A DNA stretch of 64,000 bases from Calothrix sp. NIES-4105 (GTDB lineage: Bacteria > Cyanobacteriota > Cyanobacteriia > Cyanobacteriales > Nostocaceae): the NCBI RefSeq assembly GCF_002368415.1, contig NZ_AP018290.1, positions 5,965,614 to 6,029,613 on the forward strand. The letters are read 5' to 3'. Within the stretch, counting starts at the first letter, position 1. The number at the start of each line of letters is the position of its first letter. The notes beneath the pieces are model-generated. The model was given only the letters and a program-made list of their open reading frames with translations, made no database searches and was not told the DNA's origin. Positions 30,500 to 45,948 of this stretch are shown one piece after another. The translations under genes and the position numbers were made by a program.

Positions 30500-30508
30500 G
30501 TGAGAACT

Positions 30509-31099
30509 ATGTCAAATAATTTAAGTCAAAACAAGGTTGATAATGAGATAAACGAGTATAAAGGTAAGTTGCTAACACCTTTTCAGCACAAAACTCTTGT
30601 CAAGTATTTACAGACGAATTTACAGCGAGAGTACCGTTGTCGGATTGAAATAATGCTACTGGCAGATATGGGTAAATCTCAAACTCAAATTTGTAGCATT
30701 GTCGGTTGTTCTCAAGAAATGGCACGTTATTGGATTGCGCTAGCAGAAGCTGGTTTGGCGCATAAATGGAATTCACGACCTATTGGCAGGCCTAAAACAA
30801 TCAGCAATCAATATTTAGACCGCTTGCAAGAACTGGTCAAACATAGTCCGCGCGAGTACGGTTATGCATTTGGTTCCTGGACGGCACAATGGTTAAGTAA
30901 GCATCTTGCTCAAGAATTTGATATCCAAGTCAGTGACCGTCATATTAATCGCTTGCTCAAACAAATGGGACTTTCTACCAAATCTAAGTCTTGTTACCAG
31001 CTAGAATCTGACTCCATACATAATACTGGTATTCAGATTAAGGATTTGCAATCTGCCAAAGAGCCGACCAATCAATGGTCATTAGTTGTTGGTCATTAG
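30509..31099 (+). CDS. Helix-turn-helix protein (IS630-type HTH) heading the RiPP export operon
   Basis: The start is ATG 30509 (MSNNLSQNKVDNEI); about 196 residues. Two HTH/winged-helix blocks: CRIEIMLLADMGKSQTQICS-IVGCSQEMARYW, and LQELVKHSPREYGYAFGSW...VSDRHINRLLKQMGL. These match the DNA-binding N-terminus of IS630-type transposases, but the DDE catalytic domain is absent, so it is probably a domesticated regulator. It is 30 bases from the exporter gene. It may control the peptide locus; the palindrome repeated at 40950 and 43032 is a candidate site (inference). Confidence 0.7.
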   Translation: MSNNLSQNKVDNEINEYKGKLLTPFQHKTLVKYLQTNLQREYRCRIEIMLLADMGKSQTQICSIVGCSQEMARYWIALAEAGLAHKWNSRPIGRPKTISNQYLDRLQELVKHSPREYGYAFGSWTAQWLSKHLAQEFDIQVSDRHINRLLKQMGLSTKSKSCYQLESDSIHNTGIQIKDLQSAKEPTNQWSLVVGH

Positions 31100-31129
31100 T
31101 TGTTTGATGGTAAGTCACAAAGTTTATAG

Positions 31130-34100
31130 GTGATAACAGTGTTTTCACAGGAATTAAAGAGTGAGCGACTTACCCAATTTTTTGGTGAAACGCTTACACA
31201 GAAAGAGTTAGATGAGTGTTTAGCGGTGGCGGAAATTATCGAGCCACCACCTGCAAAACAGTTTTGGAATGCAAGAGAGTCACAGCCAGGAATTTATATG
31301 ATTCTGGCAGGTAAAGTCAGGTTGCTTGATGATTCTAATAATTTAATTACTACAATTACTGTTGGAATGTCTTTCGGCGAGTTGACTTTATTTTCTGAAC
31401 ATCAGTTTATACCTTACACCGCCAGGTCTTCTGTCAATTTAAAGCTGTTGTTTCTTAAACAAGAAGTCTTGCAGCTTAAGATGCGCCAACATCCGAATCT
31501 AGAAGCGCGTATAAAGAGAAACGCTGAACTTTTAGATTTGACGCTATCGTTTCGGTTGCGTCCTGGCGGTAGTACAGATGCAGAGGAAATGCATAAAGCT
31601 TTGTCATTGTTTGACAGGCATGTTTTCGAGGCGCCTTCACAAATACCCATACCAGCAGATGCGGAAATGCTGATTATATGGCAGGGAGAAATCCTCAACT
31701 CTAACGGTAACAAGTTGACAAATGGAAATTTGTATACTATAGAACAAAATGAGAATTGGCAGGCGACTCAACCAAGCATTGCTTACATACTCAAAAGCTC
31801 AAACGTTAAAACTGCGTCTTCGCACTGGTCTAGTTTAAATCAACTCAAGAGCGATTACAAAACAGAAAGGCAAGATTCCCAATATTCAGCACCCAATATT
31901 ATCCAATTTCCACATACTGCCCAAACAAAGCGTCCAAAGCGGCAAGCATATTTTCCCAGTCCGACACTGACACTAGGACATTGGTGGGGGCGCCTAATTA
32001 AGCGTTATCCAATTTTTGAACAGCAAAGTGCCTCCGACTGTGGAGCAGCTTGTTTAATAATGATTAGTCGCTATTGGGGTAAGCGATTAAGTGTAAATCG
32101 AGTCCGAGATTTAACTAATATCAGTCGCAGTGGAGCATCATTAAAAGGTTTGGCTTTTTGTGCAGAGAGTCTTGGTTATACTACTCGTCCGGTCAAAGCC
32201 AGTCTTGACAAATTAGCACAGCAACCACTACCAGCAATCGTTCACTGGGAAGGCAAGCATTACATAGTTGTTTACGAAATTACTAAAAAACAAGTTTTTG
32301 TGGGTGACCCCGCAATTGGTCAACGTAACTTGACGGTGGCTGACTTCAAAGCAGGGTGGACAGGTTATGCTTTATTACTCGAACCCACAGTTCAGTTACA
32401 AGAAACAACAGAAACAAGTACACCATTCTGGCGCCTGTTTGAATTAGTCAGACCTCATACAGTAGTACTCTTAGAAGTATTTGCAGCATCGCTACTAATT
32501 CAAATATTTGGACTTGTAACACCTTTATTCACCCAGTTATTGCTAGATCGAGTCATAGTTCAAGGCAGTACGCTGACTTTGAATGCAGTCGGTTTTGGAC
32601 TGCTGATTTTTGGCTTATTCCGTGTTGCGCTGAATGGACTGCGGCAATATCTCCTCGACCATACGGCAAACCGCGTTGGTGTAGCTCTAATGGTAGGTTT
32701 TATCAAACATACCTTCCGCTTACCCCTAGCATTCTTTGAATCACGCTATGTCGGAGATATAGTCTCTCGTGTGCAAGAAAACCAGAAAATCCAACGTTTT
32801 CTTACAGGAGAAGCGTTATCAATTTGCCTAGATTTAATGACAGTGTTTATTTATGTGGGACTAATGTTCTGGTACAGTTGGCAAATGGCACTACTGTGCT
32901 TAACTATCGTGCCACCATTTTTCTTGCTGACACTACTCGCAACACCATTTTTACGTCGGATCTCCAAAGAAGTATTTACCGCTTTAGCTAGCGAGAACAG
33001 TTATTTAATACAAAGCTTGTCGGGAATTAGCTCAATTCGTTCAATGGCAATTGAGCAAACCGTGCGTTGGCATTGGGAAGAACAACTGAATAATTTAGTT
33101 AAAAAAACTTTCACCGGACAAGTAATTAGCAACCAACTACAAGTATTTAGTGCTACGATACAAAGCCTTGTAACTACTGGCCTGCTCTGGTTTGGGGCAT
33201 GGCAAGTAATTCAAAATCAGCTTACCATTGGGCAATTAGTGGCTTTCAATATGTTGCTGGGTAATATAATCCAGCCTTTCCAGCGGCTAATAGTGCTATG
33301 GAATCAATTACAAGAAGTTATCGTTTCTACCGAACGCATAAACGATGTGTTAGAAGCAGAACCCGAAGAAGATTTACAAGCATCACCCCGTCAGTTTTTG
33401 GATAAATTGCACGGAAGTATTCGCTTTGATAACGTTACGTTTCGTTATCATCCAGAAAGTGATATTAATGTATTAGAAAACCTCAGCTTTGAAATAAAAC
33501 CCCAACAAACGGTAGCAGTCGTTGGACGTAGCGGTTCAGGAAAAACAACGCTTTCTAAACTAATTTTGGGTTTATATAAACCAACAGACGGCAAAGTGTT
33601 GATTGATGCTCAAGATATCACAACAATTTCATTGAGCGCGCTTCGTTCGCAAATTGGTGTAGTCAACCAAGACACATTTTTGTTTGGCGGAACAATTCGT
33701 GAAAACATCAGTATTGCTCATCCTGAAGCAAACCTTGAAGAAATAGCAGAAGTCGCACGTTTGGCTGGAGCAGATGAATTTATCAAGCGTTTACCAATGG
33801 GTTACGAAACCCAAATAGGTGAAGGAGGAGGAATGCTATCAGGAGGACAGCGACAAAGATTAGCAATAGCTCGCGCGTTACTAGGTAATCCTCGCTTATT
33901 GCTCTTAGACGAAGCTACAAGTCATCTAGACTCAGAATCTGAACGTATCATTCAGAAAAATCTCAAAACAATACTCAAAGGACGTACAAGCTTAATTATT
34001 GCCCATCGTCTGTCTACCGTGCGAAATGCCGACTTAATTTTGGTATTAGCAAACGGAGTATTAGTCGAAAGCGGTACTCATAACCAACTAATTGCCAAAA

Positions 34101-34147
34101 AAGGGCATTACTTCTATCTCAATCAGCAACAACTTCAAGAGTGCTGA
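31130..34147 (+). CDS. CNBD-C39 peptidase-ABC exporter (bacteriocin/RiPP maturation and export)
   Basis: A 1005-residue protein, starting at GTG 31130. Residues ~25-130 are a cyclic-nucleotide-binding-like domain (AGKVRLLDDSNNL, GMSFGELTLFSE). Residues ~295-420 are a C39 peptidase with catalytic Cys in ASDCGAACL, His in GKHYIVVYE and Asp in FVGDPAIG. A six-helix ABC membrane domain follows, then the ATPase: Walker A GRSGSGKTT, signature LSGGQRQRLAIARA, Walker B LLLLDEATS. C39 domains cut after double-Gly leaders, and the six precursors at 41-43 kb all have such leaders, so they are the likely cargo. The CNBD N-terminus is typical of cyanobacterial exporters. Confidence 0.92.
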   Translation: MITVFSQELKSERLTQFFGETLTQKELDECLAVAEIIEPPPAKQFWNARESQPGIYMILAGKVRLLDDSNNLITTITVGMSFGELTLFSEHQFIPYTARSSVNLKLLFLKQEVLQLKMRQHPNLEARIKRNAELLDLTLSFRLRPGGSTDAEEMHKALSLFDRHVFEAPSQIPIPADAEMLIIWQGEILNSNGNKLTNGNLYTIEQNENWQATQPSIAYILKSSNVKTASSHWSSLNQLKSDYKTERQDSQYSAPNIIQFPHTAQTKRPKRQAYFPSPTLTLGHWWGRLIKRYPIFEQQSASDCGAACLIMISRYWGKRLSVNRVRDLTNISRSGASLKGLAFCAESLGYTTRPVKASLDKLAQQPLPAIVHWEGKHYIVVYEITKKQVFVGDPAIGQRNLTVADFKAGWTGYALLLEPTVQLQETTETSTPFWRLFELVRPHTVVLLEVFAASLLIQIFGLVTPLFTQLLLDRVIVQGSTLTLNAVGFGLLIFGLFRVALNGLRQYLLDHTANRVGVALMVGFIKHTFRLPLAFFESRYVGDIVSRVQENQKIQRFLTGEALSICLDLMTVFIYVGLMFWYSWQMALLCLTIVPPFFLLTLLATPFLRRISKEVFTALASENSYLIQSLSGISSIRSMAIEQTVRWHWEEQLNNLVKKTFTGQVISNQLQVFSATIQSLVTTGLLWFGAWQVIQNQLTIGQLVAFNMLLGNIIQPFQRLIVLWNQLQEVIVSTERINDVLEAEPEEDLQASPRQFLDKLHGSIRFDNVTFRYHPESDINVLENLSFEIKPQQTVAVVGRSGSGKTTLSKLILGLYKPTDGKVLIDAQDITTISLSALRSQIGVVNQDTFLFGGTIRENISIAHPEANLEEIAEVARLAGADEFIKRLPMGYETQIGEGGGMLSGGQRQRLAIARALLGNPRLLLLDEATSHLDSESERIIQKNLKTILKGRTSLIIAHRLSTVRNADLILVLANGVLVESGTHNQLIAKKGHYFYLNQQQLQEC

Positions 34148-34180
34148 GTGTTGAGTGCTGAGTGTTGAGTGTTGAGTAAG
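34144..34180. repeat. Heptamer tandem repeat GTGCTGA/GTGTTGA (STRR-like)
   Basis: GTGCTGAGTGTTGAGTGCTG and so on in steps of seven, starting at the exporter's stop codon. It is the reverse complement of the heptamers at ~5655-5722. Confidence 0.65.
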
Positions 34181-34257
34181 AACCAATGAGTAGAGCGGGC
34201 ATCCCGAACCGCCCTGGTAAAAAACAACAGTCTAAATTACCTTACAAGTGAAAAGCT

Positions 34258-35790
34258 ATGCCAAACCCATCTTTGAATTCACGGGCGCCACTAACTACGC
34301 CAAATCAAGATGAATCAACAAATACAACTCAAGCAAATCAGGTAAAGACCAAAAATAATATCAAAGACTGGTTCTACGGTACAGAAGAACTGTTAGATGC
34401 ATTACCAAGACGCTGGACACGCTCTTTGCTATATTTACTGATTGCATTCACTACAATTGTTTTACCTTGGGCAATGTTGTCCAAAGTGGATGAAACAGGA
34501 ACAGCTAGAGGACGTATACAACCCAAAGGAGCGACGCAAAAACTAGATAGTGCAGTAGGAGGTAGGGTTATAGCAGTTAAGGTCAAAGAAGGTCAAACAG
34601 TTTCTTCTGGGCAAATCTTAATGGAATTAGAATCTGATATCCTTAAAACCCAATTACAAGAAGCACAAAAAAAGTTAGAAGGTCAGAAAAATAGGCTTGC
34701 ACAAGTAAAGTTGCTAAAAAATCAACTGCTGCTATCAACAAACGTTCAAGAGCAGCAAAATAAATCTCAAGAGTTAGAAAAGCTTTCGCAAATTAATCAA
34801 GCCCAGCAAAATCTCGATGCGAAACAAAGTAACTATAATTTACAAAAGTTAGAAAAACAGGCATTAGTTAGTCAAGCGCAGCAGCAGATTAACTCCATTC
34901 AAAATGACCAACAATCCGCTCAAAATCGTTTGAGTATAGATACTAGACAAGTCGGACGATTTAGCCAACTTGTCAGCGACGGTGCCGTTTCTGCAAACCA
35001 AGTAGACCAACTCAAAAAAGAAGAGGAAGAAAGTAAAAGACTTTATGCAAAAGCGCAATCTGATACCAAACAATCTCAATTACGTTTAAACGAAGAACAA
35101 AATCGTTATCAGTCAACAATTAATCAGTTAGAAGCGGATATAAAGCAAGCAAAGCTACGTTTAGAAGAGCAAAAAAACAATTACCAAACTACAATAAAAG
35201 CAGGTCAACTCGCTATACTCAAAAATCAGGAGCAACTCAAAGACTTACAAAGACAAATTAGCAGCGAACAATCTGAAATTGCTCAAACCGGGAGTCAGAT
35301 AGCATCTTTAAAAATACAACTCGGTCAAAGAATACTACGGGCGCCTGTTGACGGCACAATATTTGAATTACCCATTACCAAACCAGATACTGTAGTACAA
35401 CCTGCCCAAACAGTAGCTCAAATAGCTCCTAAAAATACTGCGTTAGTCTTAAAAGCGCTTCTTCCTAGCCAGCAAAGCGGTTTTTTGAAAGAAGGAATGC
35501 CAGTAAAAATCAAATTTGACGCATATCCCTTCCAAGATTATGGAGTGCTACAAGGACATGTTAATTGGATATCACCTGACTCGAAAGTTCAGGAAACAAG
35601 CCAGGGAAAAGTCGAAAATTTTGAATTAGAAATAACACTTAGCAAGCCTTACATCAAAAGCGGTAACAAACGTATTGCTTTAACCCCCGGTCAAACAGCA
35701 ACAGCCGAAGTAATCGTTCGTCAACGTCGAATTATAGATTTTATCCTAGACCCATTCAAGAAATTACAAAAAGGTGGTCTAGAATTATAG
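34258..35790 (+). CDS. HlyD-family membrane fusion protein
   Basis: A 510-residue protein with a cytosolic N-terminus and one membrane helix at about residues 57-75 (SLLYLLIAFTTIVLPWAML). A lipoyl/barrel half-motif follows (GGRVIAVKVKEGQTVSSGQI). A long coiled coil of ~220 residues comes next, then the second half-motif (LRAPVDGTIFELPI) and the beta-barrel. It bridges the inner-membrane ABC exporter to an outer-membrane channel; no TolC-like gene is in the window. It is 110 bases downstream of the exporter and is presumably co-transcribed. Confidence 0.9.
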   Translation: MPNPSLNSRAPLTTPNQDESTNTTQANQVKTKNNIKDWFYGTEELLDALPRRWTRSLLYLLIAFTTIVLPWAMLSKVDETGTARGRIQPKGATQKLDSAVGGRVIAVKVKEGQTVSSGQILMELESDILKTQLQEAQKKLEGQKNRLAQVKLLKNQLLLSTNVQEQQNKSQELEKLSQINQAQQNLDAKQSNYNLQKLEKQALVSQAQQQINSIQNDQQSAQNRLSIDTRQVGRFSQLVSDGAVSANQVDQLKKEEEESKRLYAKAQSDTKQSQLRLNEEQNRYQSTINQLEADIKQAKLRLEEQKNNYQTTIKAGQLAILKNQEQLKDLQRQISSEQSEIAQTGSQIASLKIQLGQRILRAPVDGTIFELPITKPDTVVQPAQTVAQIAPKNTALVLKALLPSQQSGFLKEGMPVKIKFDAYPFQDYGVLQGHVNWISPDSKVQETSQGKVENFELEITLSKPYIKSGNKRIALTPGQTATAEVIVRQRRIIDFILDPFKKLQKGGLEL

Positions 35791-35843
35791 CACAAAATTC
35801 AACTCTAACCCCTATAACTTAATTCAAAACGGAGAATTACATC

Positions 35844-36614
35844 ATGTCCAAAACATTAAACGTATCTGAAAAAGACATTCTCAACTACATCAAAATCTCT
35901 TGTCAACTACCTGGATTATTAGAAGCAATTGCCACTCACCAAATTCTGATTAATACAATTCAAGAACAAGGTATTCAAATTAACCCGCAAGAAGTTCAAC
36001 AAGCAGCAGACAACCTACGATTAACAAACCAACTGCTCAAAGCCGAAGATACTTGGGCATGGTTAAAAAAACACTATATGACGCTCGACGAATTTGAAGA
36101 ACTAGCTCAAACCAACTTACTATCTTCAAAACTAGCAAATCACTTATTCGCCCATAAAGTAGAGTCAATATTTTATCAAGACCAACTTGAATATGCAGGC
36201 GCCGTCACGTATGAAGTCATTTTAGATGATGAGGATATAGCGCTAGAATTATTTTACTGCCTACAAGAAGGCGAGATAAATTTTACTGAAATCGCACGCC
36301 AATATATTCAAAATCTAGAACAGCGACGCGCTTATGGTTATCAAGGAATCCGACGACGTAAAGACTTTAGACCAGAAATAGCAGCAGCAGTATTTGCCGT
36401 AACTCCACCGCAAATACTCAAACCAATAATCACATCAAAAGGCGCCCATCTAATTTGGGTAGAAGAAATAATCAAACCTCAATTAGATGAACAATTACGT
36501 AGTCAAATAATAGGAGAATTATTTGCAGTGTGGTTGAAAGAGCAAATTGAGCAACTTGAAATTGTCACATGCTACGATTCCGAAAATAGTATTCCAGTTA
36601 CCAGCGGTGTTTAG
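35844..36614 (+). CDS. Parvulin-type peptidyl-prolyl isomerase (SurA-like), first copy
   Basis: A 256-residue protein with GGAGAATTACATC ahead of ATG 35844. The helical N-terminal half (~1-120) is like SurA N-domains. It is followed by a divergent parvulin core (~125-225; FTEIARQYIQNLEQRRAYGY, FAVTPPQILKPIITSKGAHLIWVEEI). There is no signal peptide, so it acts in the cytosol. As last gene of the export operon it may hold the unfolded, hydrophobic precursor for modification or export. A second parvulin lies in the facing operon. Confidence 0.82.
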   Translation: MSKTLNVSEKDILNYIKISCQLPGLLEAIATHQILINTIQEQGIQINPQEVQQAADNLRLTNQLLKAEDTWAWLKKHYMTLDEFEELAQTNLLSSKLANHLFAHKVESIFYQDQLEYAGAVTYEVILDDEDIALELFYCLQEGEINFTEIARQYIQNLEQRRAYGYQGIRRRKDFRPEIAAAVFAVTPPQILKPIITSKGAHLIWVEEIIKPQLDEQLRSQIIGELFAVWLKEQIEQLEIVTCYDSENSIPVTSGV

Positions 36615-36641
36615 GGTAAGGTGGGCACTGCCCACCCTACA
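36614..36641. repeat. GTAGGGTGGGCA palindrome between convergent operons
   Basis: TAAGGTGGGCACTGCCCACC then CTAC, at the meeting point of the two RiPP operons. It could serve as a two-way terminator; it is the same repeat family as at 2697 and 49202. Confidence 0.6.
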
Positions 36642-36642
36642 A

Positions 36643-37371
36643 CTAGTTACTCAACCAAGACTCAAACAAAGAATTCATAATTTCATCTCGGACAGATTCA
36701 CTAAGCTCAGTTGGAAACCACTTTTCAACTCTCAGAACGTGATATCCCAGTTTGCTTTCTACTGGACCAATGATTTCACCTTCAGATGCATTACTTACAA
36801 CACTACGAATTTCTGATATCAGTTCCACTAGATAGCGGACTCCTACGAAACCACCATTTTCCTGAGACTGCTTACCCTTCGAGTGTTGCAATGCCAAAGC
36901 TGCAAAAGAAGCATTTTCTTCACGCAACAAATGTATTATTTTATTCGCAGTCGCTAAATCAGGCGCCAAAATCTGCGACAGTGCCACTCTTCTATAATTA
37001 TCACGATTATTAATATAAGCAGCATCTACAGCTAGACCAAAAAGATGCTCTTTCAGCTTTCTGGTGAGCAGCGCAATTTTAACACCTTCCGACCATTGTT
37101 CCACATCAATACGCTGCTGTTGTAACCAAGCCATAGTTTCGTTATTTCCCCATAACTTGCGCTCAAGTCGAAAAGCATCACCAGCAGCTTGCCATTCTTC
37201 ATCAGTTACAGAAATATTAAAACGCTCGCAATAAGATAATATCAGCGCCTCACGTTCAGCAGCACTAGCAATTTCAGCAAATTTAGCAGAATGACGTAGA
37301 TATGCGACAATTTCCGCATCAGTTGCACTTTTGAGCGTAGGTTTATCAAGTGATACTAATTGTTCTGTCAT
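36643..37371 (-). CDS. Parvulin-type peptidyl-prolyl isomerase, second copy
   Basis: A 242-residue protein with a helical SurA-like N-terminus (EREALILSYCERFNISVTDEE). The parvulin domain is better preserved than in the first copy: RRVALSQILAPDLATANKII, FAALALQHSKGKQSQENGGF, GEIIGPVESKLGYHVLRVE. It is the last gene of the precursor-kinase-lyase operon, 20 bases after the aldo/keto reductase gene. No signal peptide. Prolines are scarce in the precursors' cores, so a chaperone role is more likely than proline isomerisation (inference). Confidence 0.85.
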   Translation of the reverse strand: MTEQLVSLDKPTLKSATDAEIVAYLRHSAKFAEIASAAEREALILSYCERFNISVTDEEWQAAGDAFRLERKLWGNNETMAWLQQQRIDVEQWSEGVKIALLTRKLKEHLFGLAVDAAYINNRDNYRRVALSQILAPDLATANKIIHLLREENASFAALALQHSKGKQSQENGGFVGVRYLVELISEIRSVVSNASEGEIIGPVESKLGYHVLRVEKWFPTELSESVRDEIMNSLFESWLSN

Positions 37372-37391
37372 AATTCAACCTATTTAAAAAC

Positions 37392-38411
37392 CTAAATTTT
37401 TATAAGACGTTCGAGCGGAATTTCTGATGCTTTTACACGATTACGATGTAAATCACCATAAAGATTGAGGTAGTCAATTTCTCTTGGTGTTAATTTACCC
37501 TTCTGTATATTCTGAATTGCAGCATCAACCTCATGACGATTTCTCCAACCTGCCAATGCCACATCAACAGAGTTTTGACTCAACGAATAACGATATAAAT
37601 CTGGTACAGAAGGTTGCCAGCACCCAGGTGGTAGTCCTAATGGAGGTTCCCAAAGTGAGCCAAACATTCCTGCAGATTTAAAGGTAACAATACCCGGTCG
37701 TTGCGGATCTTGAGCGTCTAAATGTGGAAAAACCTTTCTTTGAGCAGTACGGTGTGCGACATTGTGTCTTACCATCACCACATCTAATAACTCACTGTCT
37801 AGCCACTTTTGTGCTAAATCATGGTCATGGAAAGAGGCACCGATATAGCGTACTGCCCCCATTTTTTTCAAACGCTCTGAGACTCCAAACATTCTTTCGA
37901 TTTGTCGCTGACAGATTGAATTGGGACCGCGAATATCTTTAGAAGCACTAACGCACTTCTCGAAAGCATTATTATTATTTTCGTCAATCCAACCCCAAAA
38001 AAAGACATCAATATAATCAATACCCAAGTCTATAAACTGGTCATATAAATAGGTAAATACTGTGTCGGGGGTTCTAATCATATAAGTGACAGTTGCCAAG
38101 ACTACCTTATCGCGCGCCGAAGCTCCTCGTCCGCATAATGTACGTAGCGCTTCTCGCATCGAACTATACAGGTATTGATGCAAATCGCTTGAGTAGAAAA
38201 AATAATTGATTCCTTGGTCAAAGGCATAGAGAGTATCTTCACTTGATATATGACCTCCACCTCCTAAACCCAGACAACTAACCGTTAAATCAGTTCGTCC
38301 TAGTTTTCGGTAGAAAGGCAAATCAGACTGGGCAAATCTGCTATTTTTGAGTTCTAGGTCATCTACTGTCGCAGTTGGTGCTGCAATAGGCGCCAGATTA
38401 CTAATTTTCAT
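37392..38411 (-). CDS. Aldo/keto-reductase-fold protein lacking the usual catalytic residues
   Basis: A 339-residue protein with a TIM-barrel AKR outline: LGRTDLTVSCLGLGGGG at the start, DLGIDYIDVFFWGWID, MGAVRYIGASFHDHD, and the C-terminal LTPREIDYLNLYGDL. Aligned by eye to AKRs, the catalytic Asp (usually FDTA) is Phe in INYFFYSSDLHQY, the Lys (usually TK) is Val in VVLATVTY, and the His (usually LHxxD) is missing in FFWGWID; only a Tyr may remain. So ordinary carbonyl reduction is doubtful. It is 10 bases from the HopA1-like lyase gene. It could reduce dehydro-residues by other chemistry, or be a scaffold. Confidence 0.8.
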   Translation of the reverse strand: MKISNLAPIAAPTATVDDLELKNSRFAQSDLPFYRKLGRTDLTVSCLGLGGGGHISSEDTLYAFDQGINYFFYSSDLHQYLYSSMREALRTLCGRGASARDKVVLATVTYMIRTPDTVFTYLYDQFIDLGIDYIDVFFWGWIDENNNNAFEKCVSASKDIRGPNSICQRQIERMFGVSERLKKMGAVRYIGASFHDHDLAQKWLDSELLDVVMVRHNVAHRTAQRKVFPHLDAQDPQRPGIVTFKSAGMFGSLWEPPLGLPPGCWQPSVPDLYRYSLSQNSVDVALAGWRNRHEVDAAIQNIQKGKLTPREIDYLNLYGDLHRNRVKASEIPLERLIKI

Positions 38412-38421
38412 AATTTAATAC

Positions 38422-39534
38422 TTAGTATGCAATGTCTAAATAAATATCTTCTGAATCAGCATTAAGGTAAGGACGCTGCAATTCAACTCCTGTAGCCGAA
38501 AATTGCTCTAAAATCGATTGCATTCGGCTTTCAGGTGAATTATTACCTTGATGCCAAGCTTCGAGTAAACCGTTAGCAAGTATTTGACAGCGGTTCATTC
38601 CAAAGCTTTCTTTATCTCCAAATTTTTGGTCAGGTTCTTCTGCTATTGCTAATCCAGGAGCAATAAATTTGGTAAATAAGGGCACTTGGGATTTAAAATG
38701 CGCTTGATGTTGTGCATAAACTTGCGCGAGTACTGCATGAACAGCTTCGTAGTTATTTTTGTTAAAATAAAGCACTGCTGAGTCATAGCGCGTATAGTCA
38801 GAAGGATTATACAAAGCTTTAAACGCGAAAGGCAAATTGATTGCATTAAGTTGAGCAGTCAAACTCTCCATTACTGCAACCGCACCATCACAAGTCAAGT
38901 TAAAGTAAACGCGCGTAATATTTTCATGGCTTTGTGAAGCATTGCCAACTGCCATATAAAAACCGTTTTGTACCAAGTTTTTAGGTAATTTGATTGCCAC
39001 TAAGTCCCCAATAGTCGCAGCTTGGTGTTGTGATTGCAGATGAATTTCTCGTTCAATATGTAGTGTCAAACCACCTTTGTTGACTGCTAAACTACCATCT
39101 GATTCTTTAACTACTTGCCACCCGCCACTATAATAACCATCTCCCTGATTGCTTTGGTGCAAGCGCTCGTAAAATGTTACATCTACACCTAAAAATGTAT
39201 TGTTTTCTAGTGGGTTGACTTCCAAATTCACTCCATCTCCATCAGGCGCCAATGATTGTTGGTAGGCACCGTTATAATAAATGCCATAGAGAAAATTCGA
39301 TAGCTGTAGCTTTAAAAACTTATTTTGTAAATCCGAGGGTAATTGCTCAAAGCGTGCGACTGTCTCCGGCGCCAGTTCCAAAGGCTTATAATCTGGGTGT
39401 TTGATACAATACTGGGACTCAATCTCTAACTTCAAAGTAATATCTTGCAGCGTTGCAAGCAATCGCTCTGGGATATTTACCAATCTTTGCTGTAAATCTA
39501 ATTGTGAGCTTAATTGTGAATCGAGTATTTGCAT
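38422..39534 (-). CDS. HopA1-family lyase (LanY/LxmY-like)
   Basis: A 370-residue protein. HopA1-type features: LQLSNFLYGIYYNGAYQQ, FLGVDVTFYERLHQSNQGDG-YYSGGW, LVAIKLPKNLVQNGFYMAVGN, FKALYNPSDYTRYDSAVLY and SFGMNRCQILANGLL. HopA1 relatives serve as phospho-Ser/Thr lyases in class V lanthipeptide synthesis (LxmY), turning phosphorylated Ser/Thr into dehydroalanine/dehydrobutyrine. It is 15 bases downstream of the kinase gene, matching the split LxmK/LxmY arrangement. The family assignment is firm; the activity is inferred from that pairing. Confidence 0.85.
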   Translation of the reverse strand: MQILDSQLSSQLDLQQRLVNIPERLLATLQDITLKLEIESQYCIKHPDYKPLELAPETVARFEQLPSDLQNKFLKLQLSNFLYGIYYNGAYQQSLAPDGDGVNLEVNPLENNTFLGVDVTFYERLHQSNQGDGYYSGGWQVVKESDGSLAVNKGGLTLHIEREIHLQSQHQAATIGDLVAIKLPKNLVQNGFYMAVGNASQSHENITRVYFNLTCDGAVAVMESLTAQLNAINLPFAFKALYNPSDYTRYDSAVLYFNKNNYEAVHAVLAQVYAQHQAHFKSQVPLFTKFIAPGLAIAEEPDQKFGDKESFGMNRCQILANGLLEAWHQGNNSPESRMQSILEQFSATGVELQRPYLNADSEDIYLDIAY

Positions 39535-39549
39535 GATATCTACCCATAA

Positions 39550-40743
39550 TTAAAGCGAAAAGGACAAAGGAGTTATTTCTTTCAGAATATCTGTACCAAA
39601 TAGTGTTGGAATCGATGATTCGGGACGACATAACAAAGACTTAGCCACCTGAAGCATACAAATTCCCGTATTGCCAAAAGATTTTTGGTACTGAAGTGTA
39701 GATTGAATTGCATTAATTAAATTCCAACCAGAGAATTGTATAACTCGTCGCAAAAAATCACCTCGATGTTCTAAAATCTCTGGAAACTCTTTGACGTATG
39801 CGCGAACTAATGCTGCCATAGATGGTTGTAACTCTTCTAAAGGAGTCGTTGCCATACGCAAAGATTCATCAATGCTCATGTCCCTACTAGTCATCAAGCT
39901 ACCCAACCATAATAGTAAATAACTACCAATTAAGGTGCCTAAATCGAACGCTGGGTCTCCCCAACTACATCGCTCCCAATCAATAAGTCGTACTATTTCA
40001 TTTTTTTTACCCCCATTAACTGCCAGATGATTTACAGGGATAGTTTGCCAATCATTAAACAGCAAAATATTATTTAGCTTCAGGTCATTATGCGTTAAAC
40101 AACAGGGAGTCAAAGAAGCGTGAATTTCTGCAATTGCTTGTCCTAAACTGTCATAACGCTGGTAAAGAGTATAGAATTTTATACCATCAGCAGGAACCAA
40201 GCCAAAAATTTCCGGAGTAATCTTGCCTAATTTCCTAATTATGTTTTTGTTAAAATCAACAGATTTTTCTCTCTGTTTGCTCGTGAAAAACTCTTGATAG
40301 TCCTGATGCTTGAAAGTTAAACGATGAATTTTAGCTGTACTCGTTCCAATTGCAGTCGGGATATCTGTTGGAAAAATATTCTCTTTGGCATAAAAATCCA
40401 TCAAATCCCGGTAGTTACTCAGGTAATTAAAAACTATTATAGAATTTTCAGCGTCAAAATAAATCGCTTCGGAAATCCAAGGACGCATTTGGCTTACATG
40501 CGGAAACTGCCGCAAAAATTCATGAATACACCACTCCTGCAAAAATTCTCCAGATGTTTTACCATCTGGAGTATGAGGTTCTTGCTTAATCAAGAGTGTG
40601 CGACCATTCGTCAAAGTCACTAATAAATTAAAGTTCTTAGCGTATTTAAGCTCAATTTTGCTGTTAGCTTCTTCTTCTGCGCTACATATCGCACGTTCTC
40701 TTAAATACTCAAAAACATTTTGATTACTTAGTACAAATGTCAT
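39550..40743 (-). CDS. APH-fold kinase (LanK/LxmK-like) of the RiPP locus
   Basis: A 397-residue aminoglycoside-phosphotransferase-fold protein. The catalytic loop LTHNDLKLNNILL gives Asp and Asn, and the metal site is LIDWERCSWGDPAFDLG. The N-lobe has LLIKQEPHTPDGK (likely ATP Lys) and EFLQEWCIHEFL. In class V lanthipeptide loci a kinase of this fold phosphorylates precursor Ser/Thr before HopA1-type elimination. It is the first enzyme gene after the six precursors, with about 275 bases between holding a hairpin and a palindromic element. Antibiotic resistance is unlikely given the context. Confidence 0.85.
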   Translation of the reverse strand: MTFVLSNQNVFEYLRERAICSAEEEANSKIELKYAKNFNLLVTLTNGRTLLIKQEPHTPDGKTSGEFLQEWCIHEFLRQFPHVSQMRPWISEAIYFDAENSIIVFNYLSNYRDLMDFYAKENIFPTDIPTAIGTSTAKIHRLTFKHQDYQEFFTSKQREKSVDFNKNIIRKLGKITPEIFGLVPADGIKFYTLYQRYDSLGQAIAEIHASLTPCCLTHNDLKLNNILLFNDWQTIPVNHLAVNGGKKNEIVRLIDWERCSWGDPAFDLGTLIGSYLLLWLGSLMTSRDMSIDESLRMATTPLEELQPSMAALVRAYVKEFPEILEHRGDFLRRVIQFSGWNLINAIQSTLQYQKSFGNTGICMLQVAKSLLCRPESSIPTLFGTDILKEITPLSFSL

Positions 40744-40949
40744 AGGTCAAAATTTTTAGATTACAGAGCTTCAGAAATTAAAACAAATGAAAACAAATTA
40801 AATATCTATGACTTTAGTAGAGACGCTTGGGTATTACGTCTCTACACACGACCTTAATATTACTGATATTGGTATTACTCGTGCTGGCATTTAACTTTAT
40901 CATTGATGAATTTAACTACAAGCGTCAAGTTTAATATGTTGTTTTTTTA

Positions 40950-40972
40950 GACATAACTAAAGGAAATATGTC
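40950..40972 (-). promoter_or_regulatory. Palindromic element (copy 1) upstream of the kinase gene
   Basis: GACATA-N11-TATGTC, inside a ~35-base block that recurs upstream of the first precursor at 43032-43054 in the same orientation and with the same 11-base spacing. It lies about 205 bases ahead of the kinase start. Candidate operator shared by the peptide and enzyme blocks. Confidence 0.5.
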
Positions 40973-40984
40973 CACACACTAGTT

Positions 40985-41012
40985 GTAGAAACCGTATTAA
41001 TCCGGTTTCTAC
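40985..41012 (-). promoter_or_regulatory. Perfect 10-bp hairpin after the last precursor gene
   Basis: GTAGAAACCG pairs with CGGTTTCTAC around an 8-base loop, just after the stop of the last precursor. No T run follows on the minus strand, so it may be a processing or stabilising hairpin that lets peptide mRNA outnumber enzyme mRNA rather than a full terminator. Confidence 0.5.
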
Positions 41013-41017
41013 GTAGT

Positions 41018-41302
41018 CTACGTCGAAAAAATGTCTATTATGCTGCTTTTTATACTGTATGTAATATTGTGAAAGTAACTATCAACGTTAAAATATGCAG
41101 GCGCCCAATACTGTTGATAGTTTCGCTCGTTTTGATATTCTGGAACAACTAAAAAACCTGCTGTTACAGTAGCTTGACTCACTACTACACCGCCTAAGGT
41201 ATATTTTATCTCCGCATCATTTAGCTCCTCTAAGTAACTTTCTGAATCTACGAGTAAATCGGAGCCAACTAAGCCTAAATTTGATATCTTTATACTAGAC
41301 AT
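41018..41302 (-). CDS. RiPP precursor peptide 6
   Basis: A 94-residue peptide. The leader is MSSIKISNLGLVGSDLLVDS-ESYLEELNDAEIKYTLGG; the core is about 56 residues. The core opens with VVVSQATVTAG, the block shared by the family, and goes on to a Tyr/Asn-rich stretch and an SIKSSI-IDIFST end. No cysteine. It has the longest and least hydrophobic core of the set. It is the last of six, followed by a hairpin and then the kinase gene. Confidence 0.85.
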   Translation of the reverse strand: MSSIKISNLGLVGSDLLVDSESYLEELNDAEIKYTLGGVVVSQATVTAGFLVVPEYQNERNYQQYWAPAYFNVDSYFHNITYSIKSSIIDIFST

Positions 41303-41326
41303 TTGCTTGATTCTCCATAATTTATC

Positions 41327-41365
41327 TGTAGGTTGGGTTCCGTTCCTCCACCCAACCTACGAGCA
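41327..41365. repeat. Palindromic repeat GTAGGTTGGGTTC between precursors 6 and 5
   Basis: GTAGGTTGGGTTC and CACCCAACCTAC form a hairpin between two precursor genes, a member of the repeat type also at ~21320-21382. Confidence 0.6.
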
Positions 41366-41374
41366 ATGATATTT

Positions 41375-41644
41375 CTAAGCAGGAGAAAGGACGGAATAGG
41401 TTTGTAAACCAACTCCAACAGAAACAGTTACTTCGGTTTGCACAAACTGAGTTTCCACATTTTTGACTGCTGGCGTGTCGATAATATAGGTGTACGCGAC
41501 TGCATAAGATATAATTTCAGTCAAAGCAGCACCACCTACAACAGTTTCCGTTTCTTTGTTGCTTAGGTCATTAAGAAAACTTTCTGAATCCTCAAATAAG
41601 TCAAAACCAGCAGGACGCAGTAGACTAATTTTGATGCTAGCCAT
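41375..41644 (-). CDS. RiPP precursor peptide 5
   Basis: I start it at ATG 41642-41644 (MASIKISLLRPAG), aligned with the sisters; 89 residues. The leader holds LFEDSESFLNDLSNKETETV and VGG. The core has TEVTVSVG, matching the shared [S/T][Q/E]x[T/S]x[S/T]xG block, and ends GLQTYSVLSPA like the tail of precursors 1-3. No cysteine. Compared with precursors 1-3 there is an extra ~25 residues before the block. Confidence 0.85.
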   Translation of the reverse strand: MASIKISLLRPAGFDLFEDSESFLNDLSNKETETVVGGAALTEIISYAVAYTYIIDTPAVKNVETQFVQTEVTVSVGVGLQTYSVLSPA

Positions 41645-41677
41645 AGTCCAGTCCTCTAACACGACTTTGTTCATTCA

Positions 41678-41911
41678 CTAAATTGCTACAGACAAGGAAA
41701 GCAAATCACTATTTGCATCAGGCTCTACAAAAGTCAAATTTGAATCAGTCGGTAAGTATTCGTAACCAACACTATAAGTTACTTGACTTACAGACGAACC
41801 ACCATTGACCATACTAAGTTCCTGGTTAGTTAGCTCTACTAAAAAGCTTTCACTATCCTCAAATAATTCGTGCCCATTTTGACGAAGCTCTAATATCCTA
41901 ATATTAGGCAT
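41678..41911 (-). CDS. RiPP precursor peptide 4
   Basis: I start it at ATG 41909-41911 (MPNIRILELRQNGHELF), after CAGGAGGTATCAA, an excellent ribosome site; 77 residues. The leader includes FEDSESFLVELTNQELSMV and NGG. The core begins SSVSQVTYSVGYEY, carrying the shared block, then a more acidic Asp/Pro part ending LLSLSVAI. No cysteine in the peptide from this start. Confidence 0.85.
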   Translation of the reverse strand: MPNIRILELRQNGHELFEDSESFLVELTNQELSMVNGGSSVSQVTYSVGYEYLPTDSNLTFVEPDANSDLLSLSVAI

Positions 41912-41986
41912 TTGATACCTCCTGCATGTGAGCAATTGAGTTTGGTTACCTCAAGCACTCCGAATCGCGCCGTTCTGCATCGAAAA

Positions 41987-42226
41987 TTAATTATTGAATG
42001 CGTTAACAACTAAAGGTGCATTGCTAACAGCAGATAAAGTTGCTAGAGAAATTCCTTGAGATATTGTAATTTGACTATTGATATAGATATCAGAAGTTAC
42101 TGCTGAATACTTATATCCACCTTGAACTTCTCTAACTTCATTTTCAGTTAACTCGTTAAGGTAGCTTTCAGAATCATTAAAAAGTTCACTGCCAACAGGA
42201 TGAAGTTGATTAACTTTTACAAACAT
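41987..42226 (-). CDS. RiPP precursor peptide 3
   Basis: A 79-residue peptide. Leader: VKVNQLHPVGSELFNDSESY then LNELTENEVREVQGG. The core is ~41 residues with NSQITISQGISLATLSAVSN, nearly the same ending as precursors 1 and 2, after an extra YKYSAVTSDIYI and before PLVVNAFNN. Ser/Thr-rich, no cysteine. About 220 bases separate it from precursor 2; that gap holds an imperfect TCAATCGGGA/TTCCGGTTGA hairpin (~42262-42290). Confidence 0.87.
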   Translation of the reverse strand: MFVKVNQLHPVGSELFNDSESYLNELTENEVREVQGGYKYSAVTSDIYINSQITISQGISLATLSAVSNAPLVVNAFNN

Positions 42227-42445
42227 GTTTACATTCCTTAAGAAAAGTGCTATTATTGGCTAATCAACCGGAATTATTTCAATCCCGATTGACTTATAGA
42301 AGCTTGACATTGATGTCAAGTTATAAATTGCACGGAAATCAAACAATTTGCTGTTGAGAATCTTAGCAGGAATCAATGGCAAAATTTTACGTGATATCCG
42401 GCAATTTATTTAAATATTTGCTTTTAATTAAACTAAACTTGGTTA

Positions 42446-42643
42446 TTAACCGAAGTTAGAAATAGCACTTAGAGTTGCGATTGATACGCCTATACTGAGT
42501 GAGAATTGGCTAATCACGCCAACGGCACCTCCACCAACAGTTGCAGAGATTTCTTGCTCGTTAAGTTCATTCAAATAGCTTTCAGAATCTTGGAAGAATT
42601 CAGAACCAGCAGGACGAAGGTCAGAGATTTTTAGAAAAGCCAT
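42446..42643 (-). CDS. RiPP precursor peptide 2
   Basis: The start is ATG 42641-42643 (MAFLKISDLRPAGSEFF); 65 residues. The leader is identical to that of precursor 1 up to SATVGGG. Core: AVGVISQFSLSIGVSIATLS followed by AISNFG. No cysteine. Precursors 1 and 2, with their upstream DNA (GATTTTACTCC and TTTGTTGTGGTT), are a recent tandem duplication. Confidence 0.88.
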   Translation of the reverse strand: MAFLKISDLRPAGSEFFQDSESYLNELNEQEISATVGGGAVGVISQFSLSIGVSIATLSAISNFG

Positions 42644-42705
42644 GATTTTACTCCTAAAATTTGATTTGTTGTGGTTGCTAAGTGATAAATGGTTACTAAC
42701 CAAAG

Positions 42706-42900
42706 TTAGAAGTTAGAAATTAAGCTTGCTGTTAGAATTGATATACCAACACTAACTGTAGCTTGGCTGATAACGCTAACCACGCCTCCTCCAAGAGTTG
42801 CGGAGATTTCTTGCTCGTTGAGTTCATTCAAATAGCTTTCAGAATCTTGGAAGAATTCAGAACCAGCAGGACGGAGGTCAGAGATTTTTAGAAAAGCCAT
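42706..42900 (-). CDS. RiPP precursor peptide 1
   Basis: A 64-residue peptide. The leader runs MAFLKISDLRPAGSEFFQDS, ESYLNELNEQEISATLGGG; the double-Gly end fits C39 cleavage. The core is ~25 residues: VVSVISQATVSVGISILTAS then LISNF. It has seven Ser/Thr and no cysteine, so dehydration is possible but thioether rings are not. GAGT sits ahead of ATG 42900. It is the first gene of the precursor block and sits ~130 bases after the palindromic element. Confidence 0.88.
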   Translation of the reverse strand: MAFLKISDLRPAGSEFFQDSESYLNELNEQEISATLGGGVVSVISQATVSVGISILTASLISNF

Positions 42901-45676: not shown

Positions 45677-45696
45677 TAATAAAGTTAATAAAATTA

Positions 45697-45944
45697 AATC
45701 CCCCCTAACCCCCCTTAATAAGCTACTGTGTACACACAAGTTTCTTAAAGTTACTTTTCTTCTCTTTCTTCTCTTCCTTTGTGACCTACCCTGCGGGAAA
45801 TCCTCCGGATTATGTGACCTTTGTGGTTCCTTAAAGAGATAAACCACTTTGACACAAAGGACACAAAGGGGGGAAAAAAGGTCGTTATTAAAGATGTGTG
45901 TACACAGTAGCTTCCAAGCGCTCTGTTGGGGGGATTTAATCCAA
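45697..45944. repeat. Miniature inverted-repeat element, GTGTACAC family (copy 2)
   Basis: It has GCTACTGTGTACACACAAG and TGTGTGTACACAGTAGC ends, within outer TTAAATCCCCCC / GGGGGGATTTAA arms. The interior carries CTTTGTG/CACAAAG arms and an extra CCTGCGGGAAATCCTCCGGA insert. It lies between the TpsB stop and the CHAT gene and overlaps the CHAT gene's open frame. Confidence 0.78.
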
Positions 45945-45948
45945 AATC

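What the first reader, a model, noticed from the sequence alone, without database searches (positions are those of the whole stretch)
30509..42900. RiPP locus with a class V-like split kinase/lyase but wholly cysteine-free precursors
Seen: six tandem small ORFs share a DSES(Y/F)L-x-(E/D)L leader ending in GG. Next to them are an APH-fold kinase, a HopA1-family protein, an AKR-fold protein and two parvulins; a CNBD-C39-ABC exporter and HlyD protein complete the set. Known: LxmK/LxmY-type kinase plus HopA1-type lyase dehydrate Ser/Thr in class V lanthipeptides, where Cys then forms rings. None of these six precursors has Cys. Inference: the product is a dehydrated, ring-free (or non-thioether) secreted peptide family, possibly further tailored, which would be a distinct RiPP class.
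Basis: partly seen in the sequence, partly recalled or inferred. Interest (0 to 1): 0.9.

Follow-up and report, generated by a model that had tools for sequence, protein, structure and literature searches.

The report
Cysteine-free dehydrated-peptide cluster with reductase-fold protein
A cyanobacterial gene cluster of a known but uncharacterised peptide family probably strips water from serines and threonines in cysteine-free peptides, and carries an unusual reductase-fold protein that may act on these sites in place of ring formation, possibly a new way to make mirror-image (D-) amino acids.

Summary
In detail: six tandem DSES(Y/F)L...GG precursors without Cys, next to an APH-type kinase, a HopA1-type lyase, an AKR-fold protein, two parvulins and a C39-ABC/HlyD exporter. 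Kinase and lyase are sequence relatives of LxmK/LxmY and keep the known catalytic residues, so Ser/Thr dehydration is likely. It is not a lone oddity: it fits the cyanobacterial 'Family 1A' of HopA1/phosphotransferase clusters (Eyles 2021, PMC8153245) and the 'group II bacteriocins' of 2011 (PMC3140520). Mostly Cys-free cores are a family trait; some sister loci do carry Cys.

What I find new is the AKR. All 45 places found in 388 genomes (E <= 1e-25) share a stretch of at most 20 kb with a Ser/Thr dehydratase: 42 HopA1/APH (one a single HopA1-AKR frame), 3 the unrelated LanM. Those LanM loci have Cys in 1 of 25 cores, against 36 of 52 in sampled LanM loci without AKR. The AKR lacks at least two, probably three, standard catalytic residues but has its own invariant set, and travels with its own parvulin. 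Best reading: it tailors dehydro-residues, most likely by reduction to D-Ala/D-Abu, giving ring-free secreted peptides. The reduction is inferred.

The parts
30500..31099 (+). HTH protein (HTH_32/HTH_28/HTH_33), probable regulator of the cluster (role inferred)
   Evidence: Pfam; same gene family near HopA1 in 40 of 83 related loci, often next to C39-ABC
31130..34147 (+). C39 peptidase-ABC exporter with N-terminal CNBD-like domain ('long type'); expected to remove the GG leader and export
   Evidence: Pfam, NCBIfam; long type described in PMC3140520
34258..35790 (+). HlyD-type membrane fusion protein
   Evidence: TIGR01843 over its cut-off, Pfam
35844..36614 (+). PPI1: parvulin-type isomerase that goes with the exporter
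   Evidence: Rotamase; TIGR04500 4.5e-16, below cut-off; present in AKR and non-AKR loci alike
36643..37371 (-). PPI2: second parvulin, companion of the AKR
   Evidence: Rotamase; PPI2 orthologue in 23 of 26 loci with AKR and 1 of 57 without; 20 bp from the AKR gene
37392..38411 (-). AKR-fold protein with altered active site; proposed dehydroamino-acid reductase
   Evidence: Pfam 1.4e-9; AlphaFold model pLDDT 70.6, pTM 0.74; best PDB matches are AKRs, TM about 0.4-0.6; linked to two unrelated dehydratases
38422..39534 (-). HopA1-type phospho-Ser/Thr lyase (LanY-like)
   Evidence: PF17914 2e-59; PDB 9dk1_B lyase 1.1e-7; R208/K239/R249/Y256 conserved with nearly the spacing of CaoY R187/K219/R229/Y236
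39550..40743 (-). APH/choline-kinase-fold Ser/Thr kinase (LanK-like)
   Evidence: NF038156 LxmK 6e-23, below its cut-off; 9dk1_A kinase 0.013; K53, H218-x-D220, N225, D255-x-E257 conserved in 79-80 of 80 rows
41018..41302 (-). precursor A6
   Evidence: leader and GG, no Cys
41375..41644 (-). precursor A5 (listed ORF starts at 41674)
41678..41911 (-). precursor A4 (listed ORF starts at 41935; an AGGAGG stands 5' of the 41911 ATG)
41987..42226 (-). precursor A3
42446..42643 (-). precursor A2 (listed ORF starts at 42703)
   Evidence: 83% identical to A1
42706..42900 (-). precursor A1

Best explanation
This is a RiPP cluster of the cyanobacterial HopA1/phosphotransferase family, in its AKR-bearing form. 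Likely steps: (1) the leader DSES(Y/F)LxxL..GG brings six different cores to a kinase-lyase pair; (2) the kinase phosphorylates Ser/Thr and the HopA1-type lyase eliminates phosphate, giving Dha/Dhb (strongly inferred from homology and conserved residues); (3) because the cores have no Cys and the genome no LanC-like cyclase, no thioether rings form; (4) the AKR-fold protein, helped by its parvulin PPI2, acts on the dehydro-residues, most likely reducing them to D-Ala/D-Abu (association shown, chemistry inferred); (5) the C39-ABC/HlyD exporter with PPI1 cuts at GG and secretes ring-free, hydrophobic peptides with D-residues or dehydro-residues. Step (2) I hold at about 0.85, step (4) as 'acts on dehydro-residues' at about 0.7 and as 'reductase' at about 0.5.
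For: Kinase and lyase; CaoK/CaoY were shown in vitro to dehydrate (PMC9486802, passages). Cys-free: 0 of 6 here; 3 of 88 unique cores in the AKR clade around the window. AKR tied to dehydration: all 45 AKR places found at E <= 1e-25 in 388 order-wide genomes lie in the same stretch (20 kb or less) as a Ser/Thr dehydratase, 42 HopA1/APH and 3 LanM without HopA1 (LanM domains shown for L136 and L137, for L155 by 48% identity and the DUF4135 hit G302:C204). One HopA1-AKR pair is a single 714-aa frame. LanM-linked AKRs fall in two places of the AKR tree, so the context changed at least twice. LanM+AKR loci: Cys in 1 of 25 cores; sampled LanM loci without AKR: 36 of 52 cores; majority-Cys loci 0 of 3 against 20 of 23, Fisher p 0.008. 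AKR residues C46, D76, H78, Y82, Y110, W139, W141, H195, R215, H216, N217, H220 and K245 are invariant in 62 rows, 54 distinct, which speaks for an enzyme, not a relic. PPI2 goes with the AKR.
Against: No chemistry is shown. In the printed alignment to Kv-beta-2 the canonical Asp and Lys sites read F72 and V108, and carrying that alignment on by two residues the His site reads G140, so ordinary AKR carbonyl chemistry is unlikely and hydride transfer itself is unproven; region 247-289 of the model has pLDDT under 50, so cofactor binding could not be judged. 57 of 83 HopA1 loci show no AKR yet have mostly Cys-free cores (12 of 218 with Cys), so the AKR is not needed for the Cys-free state there. 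AKR loci outside the window's clade do have Cys (40 of 91). Cys-free LanM loci without AKR exist (L193, L210, L211). Only three LanM+AKR loci were found, one of them has one Cys core, and L155 sits on a long branch.
Confidence: 0.55

Rival explanations
1. Dehydration only: the products simply keep many Dha/Dhb residues, and the AKR-fold protein is a substrate-binding or scaffold subunit without redox activity.
For: Loss of two, probably three, canonical AKR catalytic residues; 57 of 83 HopA1 loci lack the AKR and still have mostly Cys-free cores.
Against: A substitute set of polar and aromatic residues is invariant in 62 rows across both dehydratase contexts; a mere scaffold would hardly follow LanM as well as HopA1.
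Confidence: 0.25
2. Rings form by another nucleophile: Dha/Dhb are attacked by Lys, His or another side chain (lysinoalanine- or histidinobutyrine-like), with AKR or PPI2 as cyclase.
For: A nitrogen crosslink to a dehydro-residue is known (PMC10880069, passage); many non-AKR cores contain Lys and His close to Ser.
Against: A1, A2 and A4 contain no Cys, Lys or His, and 35 of 88 unique cores of this AKR clade lack all three.
Confidence: 0.1
3. The AKR reduces an N-terminal 2-oxo group that arises when an N-terminal Dha/Dhb hydrolyses after leader removal (as recalled for ElxO of epilancin 15X).
For: Ketone reduction is usual AKR chemistry (recalled).
Against: Only 4 of 88 unique cores of the clade start with Ser/Thr, and 4 of 25 in the LanM+AKR loci; of the window cores only A4 does; the leader is presumably cut by the exporter, after the cytoplasm (inference).
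Confidence: 0.05
4. A true lanthipeptide whose Cys comes from a second precursor encoded elsewhere, or a degenerate cluster.
For: The same genome has a sister locus whose cores contain Cys (L004, 4 of 5).
Against: No further confident precursor with this leader in the genome, no LanC-like match, no LanM match; the window genes are intact, with the same gene set in L012 and L006.
Confidence: 0.05

Closest known systems
Family 1A HopA1/phosphotransferase RiPP clusters of cyanobacteria (Eyles et al. 2021, PMC8153245; section 16 read)
   Same: Cyanobacterial; conserved GG leader; several non-identical precursors; highly variable cores without conserved Ser, Thr or Cys; HopA1 beside a phosphotransferase.
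   Different: The section read names no AKR, no parvulin and no Cys-free rule; no product is given there.
Group II cyanobacterial bacteriocin clusters (Wang, Fewer, Sivonen 2011, PMC3140520; sections 5 and 6 read, passages of others)
   Same: Long-type C39-ABC with CAP_ED domain, HlyD, SurA, many precursors, extra modification genes. The M16 peptidase that the paper links to group II lies near HopA1 in 24 of 83 of my loci.
   Different: In the text I read most modification domains are unnamed; the window has no relative of that M16 protein.
Class V lanthipeptides: lexapeptide LxmKY, cacaoidin CaoKY
   Same: Split kinase plus HopA1 lyase; conserved catalytic residues; sequence match to PDB 9DK1, which PMC12141560 (passages) identifies as LxmKY.
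   Different: No Cys, no LanC-like protein in the genome, no HFCD decarboxylase nearby, an AKR where lexapeptide has the F420-dependent LanJC.
LanJ dehydroamino-acid reductases (JA zinc/NADPH, JB flavin, JC F420; PMC11519912, passages)
   Same: Encoded beside a Ser/Thr dehydratase; proposed to turn Dha/Dhb into D-Ala/D-Abu.
   Different: AKR fold; not one of the three classes named there; activity unproven.
[quoted passage not shown] content recalled, the paper is not held)
   Same: Several Ser/Thr converted to D-residues with few rings (recalled).
   Different: LanM and flavin LanJB, Bacillus cereus.

Membership tests
Family 1A HopA1/phosphotransferase RiPPs (Eyles 2021) | HopA1 protein encoded beside a phosphotransferase | tested here: met
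   38422-39534 and 39550-40743, 15 bp apart
Family 1A HopA1/phosphotransferase RiPPs (Eyles 2021) | multiple precursors with conserved GG leader and variable cores, cyanobacterial | tested here: met
   the 80 named relatives have cyanobacterial titles
Family 1A HopA1/phosphotransferase RiPPs (Eyles 2021) | same similarity-network family (40% identity) | not testable with these tools
Class V lanthipeptide | LanK-type kinase and LanY-type lyase, catalytic residues present | tested here: met
   the LxmK equivalog cut-off (315 bits) is not reached, 81 bits
Class V lanthipeptide | Cys in the core as ring partner (Lan/MeLan) | tested here: not met
   0 of 6 cores
Class V lanthipeptide | HFCD decarboxylase for AviMeCys nearby (in the characterised members) | tested here: not met
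   the only two PF02441 places in the genome are far from the window
Lanthipeptide in general | a LanC-type cyclase | tested here: not met
   0 LANC_like in the 12.04-Mb genome; cyclases without LanC fold, as in class V, are not excluded
Group II cyanobacterial bacteriocin (2011) | long-type C39-ABC, HlyD, SurA-like rotamase, modification genes, several precursors | tested here: met
   (CNBD just under Pfam cut-off)
LanJ dehydroamino-acid reductase | reduces Dha/Dhb to D-Ala/D-Abu | not testable with these tools
   needs biochemistry
LanJ dehydroamino-acid reductase | encoded with a Ser/Thr dehydratase | tested here: met
   45 of 45 AKR places at E <= 1e-25
Aldo-keto reductase superfamily | AKR TIM-barrel fold | tested here: met
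   Pfam over cut-off; AKRs are the top Foldseek matches, probability 1.00 but TM only about 0.4-0.6
Aldo-keto reductase superfamily | catalytic tetrad Asp-Tyr-Lys-His (recalled) | tested here: not met
   F72 and V108 at the Asp and Lys sites of the printed Kv-beta-2 alignment, G140 at the His site by extending it two residues; Tyr site uncertain

The most novel reading that the evidence does not exclude
The AKR-fold protein, with its partner parvulin, is a fourth and independently evolved kind of dehydroamino-acid reductase. It turns whole series of Ser/Thr into D-Ala/D-Abu in Cys-free cores and has been passed between two unrelated dehydratase systems (HopA1/APH and LanM), so cyanobacteria secrete a large, overlooked group of ring-free peptides rich in D-residues.
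Probability: 0.4. Interest if true: 0.8.

Novelty: new variant of a known kind. Interest (0 to 1): 0.62.

Why it matters
Dehydration without Cys leaves open what the family's products are; Eyles et al. call finding the true products of such clusters a significant future effort (PMC8153245). The AKR link gives a direct test with few genes. If it is a reductase, it adds an AKR to the three LanJ classes named in PMC11519912 and a tool to place D-residues in peptides; if it does something else to Dha/Dhb, that is a new tailoring step. The Cys-free trait also matters for genome mining: the class V study collected precursors that contain Cys (PMC9486802, section 7) and so would miss peptides like these.

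Tried and rejected
Strict i/i+2 Ser/Thr alternation, as a D/L beta-helix would need: rejected. In 53 non-redundant cores of the window's AKR clade Ser/Thr avoid adjacency (lag 1 at 0.28 of shuffled, z -9.9) and prefer spacings 3 (1.48) and 5 (1.63), with lag 2 at 0.89.

N-terminal ketone reduction by the AKR: made unlikely by the first residues of the cores. Transposase remnant for 30500-31099: rejected, its family recurs at RiPP loci. Another reductase as the reason for the Cys-free LanM loci: ten neighbour proteins from L210 (5), L193 (4) and L200 (1) were scanned and none was a reductase; L210 has a JmjC protein and 2OG oxygenases. A LanC-like, HFCD or LanJ gene near type-A loci: 44 of the 54 neighbour ORFs selected were scanned, 78 families matched and only the first 25 are shown; none of these is among the 25.

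Literature: 'keto reductase' had 0 occurrences in each of the 25 papers listed (219 matched), and 'aldo-keto reductase' 0 in the 15 listed (35 matched). The statement that the AKR link is not in print rests on these, and on a CC-licensed library only; supplements could not be read.

Not done: a second structure prediction, structural superposition of the lyase on LxmY, and any scan of viral contigs, phages or plasmids.
Full report
1. What is there. The biosynthetic genes run on the - strand: six precursors, then kinase, lyase, AKR and parvulin PPI2, with gaps of 10 to 20 bp between the four enzyme genes. The export genes run on the + strand: HTH protein, C39-ABC, HlyD, parvulin PPI1. The two parvulins face each other at 36.6 kb. 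The precursors share DSES(Y/F)L and a GG leader end, and their cores differ. None has Cys; A1, A2 and A4 have no Lys or His either. The window lies at C1:5965614-6029613 of a 12.04-Mb genome with three HopA1 loci.

2. Relatives. A genome-contig scan with the HopA1 protein kept the best 80 of 165 confirmed loci, all with cyanobacterial titles. A kinase relative, in some cases cut by the contig end, was found in all 80, and exporter genes in most with enough flank. In a phylum-wide sample 42 of 292 genomes have HopA1. Among 83 loci (80 named, the window, L004, L005), 26 have the AKR and 57 do not; of the 80 named, one AKR-less locus (L029) ends less than 1.2 kb after HopA1, so its AKR could be missing for that reason. 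I call type A the 13 with AKR at 72% identity or more to the window's, type B the 13 below that, and N the rest. Unique cores with Cys: A 0 of 44, B 21 of 34, N 12 of 218. After adding the AKR loci of the order-wide search and taking instead the AKR tree clade around the window (a few loci not in the tree, L011, L017, L081, L143 and L174, were placed by me by identity or relatedness), the counts are: window clade 3 of 88, other AKR loci 40 of 91, no AKR 12 of 218. In some searches precursors of the loci known count only within 6.5 kb of HopA1; those of the loci fetched later have no such limit. Without that filter 47 of 334 parsed cores had Cys and 12 hits could not be parsed. Core limits were set by a rule (first G[GASC] at or after residue 23 of the hit), so some are off by a residue or more.

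3. Dehydratase. The lyase matches PDB 9dk1_B at 1.1e-7 and the kinase 9dk1_A at 0.013; 9DK1 is LxmKY according to PMC12141560 (passages). CaoY residues R187, K219 and R229 (mutated there) and Y236 (PMC9486802, passages) have equivalents by spacing at R208, K239, R249 and Y256 here (32/10/7 residues apart there, 31/10/7 here). Conservation in 113 rows (110 distinct): R208 112, K239 105 (6 Gln, 2 Tyr), R249 113, Y256 110. The kinase motifs are conserved in 79 or 80 of 80 rows. This equivalence is by spacing and Pfam family, not by a structural superposition.

4. AKR. The protein has the AKR fold (TM-scores about 0.4-0.6 only, model pLDDT 70.6). In the printed alignment to Kv-beta-2 the Asp and Lys sites read F72 and V108; carrying it on by two residues past its end, the His site reads G140 (my reading). 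The Tyr site falls near H78-Y82 across a gap and is unclear. In 62 rows F72, V108, G140 and many polar residues do not vary. An order-wide search found AKR relatives (E <= 1e-25) in 41 of 388 genomes, 46 rows at 45 places. All were fetched and annotated (the window itself; annotation): 42 lie in the same stretch as HopA1 and APH, the other three (L136, L137, L155) beside LanM without HopA1. L163 has HopA1 and also a LanM-like match. One locus, L172, encodes lyase and AKR as a single 714-aa frame. In the AKR tree L136 and L137 form one branch and L155 lies inside the HopA1-linked rows (97/89), though on a long branch whose place the program calls unsure. Among HopA1 lyases the AKR label needs at least four changes on starred branches.

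5. Cys and AKR in LanM loci. 40 LanM stretches without AKR were taken, mostly from the top of the 75 match rows; the AKR loci were left out, rows in one stretch were taken together, and some high rows were passed over (G116:C114, two 671-aa frames in G344 and G357, G338:C8, G366:C7, G129:C6). With precursor models seeded on the AKR loci, 23 of the 40 gave a parsed core: 36 of 52 cores had Cys, against 1 of 25 in the three AKR loci; 14 hits were not parsed. By locus, majority-Cys 20 of 23 against 0 of 3, Fisher p 0.008. The core-level p of 2e-8 overstates it because cores within a locus are related. The models were seeded on AKR-locus leaders, so the control set leans to similar leaders, and in a few control loci (L179, L183, L187) the core was cut too early. 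Three control loci (L193, L210, L211) are Cys-free without AKR; L210 and L211 are close relatives by their cores.

6. Parvulin partner. A PPI2 orthologue (48% identity or more) is in 23 of 26 AKR loci and 1 of 57 without AKR. The three AKR loci without it (L040, L043, L081) end within 260 bp of the AKR gene. No PPI2 match was seen in the three LanM loci.

7. Reading. Kinase plus lyase on Ser/Thr-rich, Cys-free cores gives Dha/Dhb. A protein that follows two unrelated dehydratases, and in the window's clade and the LanM loci their Cys-poor substrates, most simply acts on the dehydro-residues. Reduction is the best guess because AKRs are NAD(P)H enzymes (recalled) and known LanJ enzymes do this (PMC11519912, passages). 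From recall, AKR1D1 (steroid 5-beta-reductase) shows that the fold can reduce a C=C bond with a changed tetrad. The guess is not proven, and AKR loci with Cys (several with SSxxC) suggest that AKR and ring formation may also coexist.

8. Known or not. The cluster kind is known (Family 1A, PMC8153245, section 16; group II, PMC3140520, sections 5 and 6). The Eyles section says that cores lack conserved Ser, Thr or Cys; it does not state that they are Cys-free and names no AKR. I therefore rate the find a new variant of a known kind.

Noticed in passing
L172:8357-10498 (+): Lyase and AKR are one 714-aa reading frame, a natural fusion (or a lost stop), supporting joint action.
   Followed up: partly
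L210, L211: LanM loci with six Cys-free Nif11-type cores each, all twelve ending in KW, with a JmjC-domain protein next to LanM in L210 and no AKR; possibly another ring-free tailoring route.
   Followed up: partly
L015, L016, L021, L024 (first precursor of the array): In several non-AKR loci the first precursor has a run of 6-7 Arg near the start of its core, unlike the following ...AKSFS... cores.
   Followed up: no
32 of 54 named non-AKR loci with parsed precursors (L006-L085): 130 of 244 cores carry an [AV]KS(F/Y)S motif; a conserved Ser pair as possible dehydration site, in Nostoc, Anabaena, Nodularia and kin.
   Followed up: partly
L006, L008, L009, L138: Cores with Asn-rich repeats such as NANTVGNVNT, reminiscent (from recall) of polytheonamide-type cores.
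   Followed up: no
L005 (G000:C1:8247000-8266500): Third HopA1/kinase pair of the same genome, about 40-45% identical, with no precursor carrying this leader found nearby.
   Followed up: partly
window 43172-45997 (-): TPR-CHAT protein directly upstream of the precursor array; relation to the cluster unknown.
   Followed up: no
window 35844-36614 and 36643-37371: Both parvulins match TIGR04500 (PpiC-related putative peptide maturation protein) below its cut-off.
   Followed up: partly
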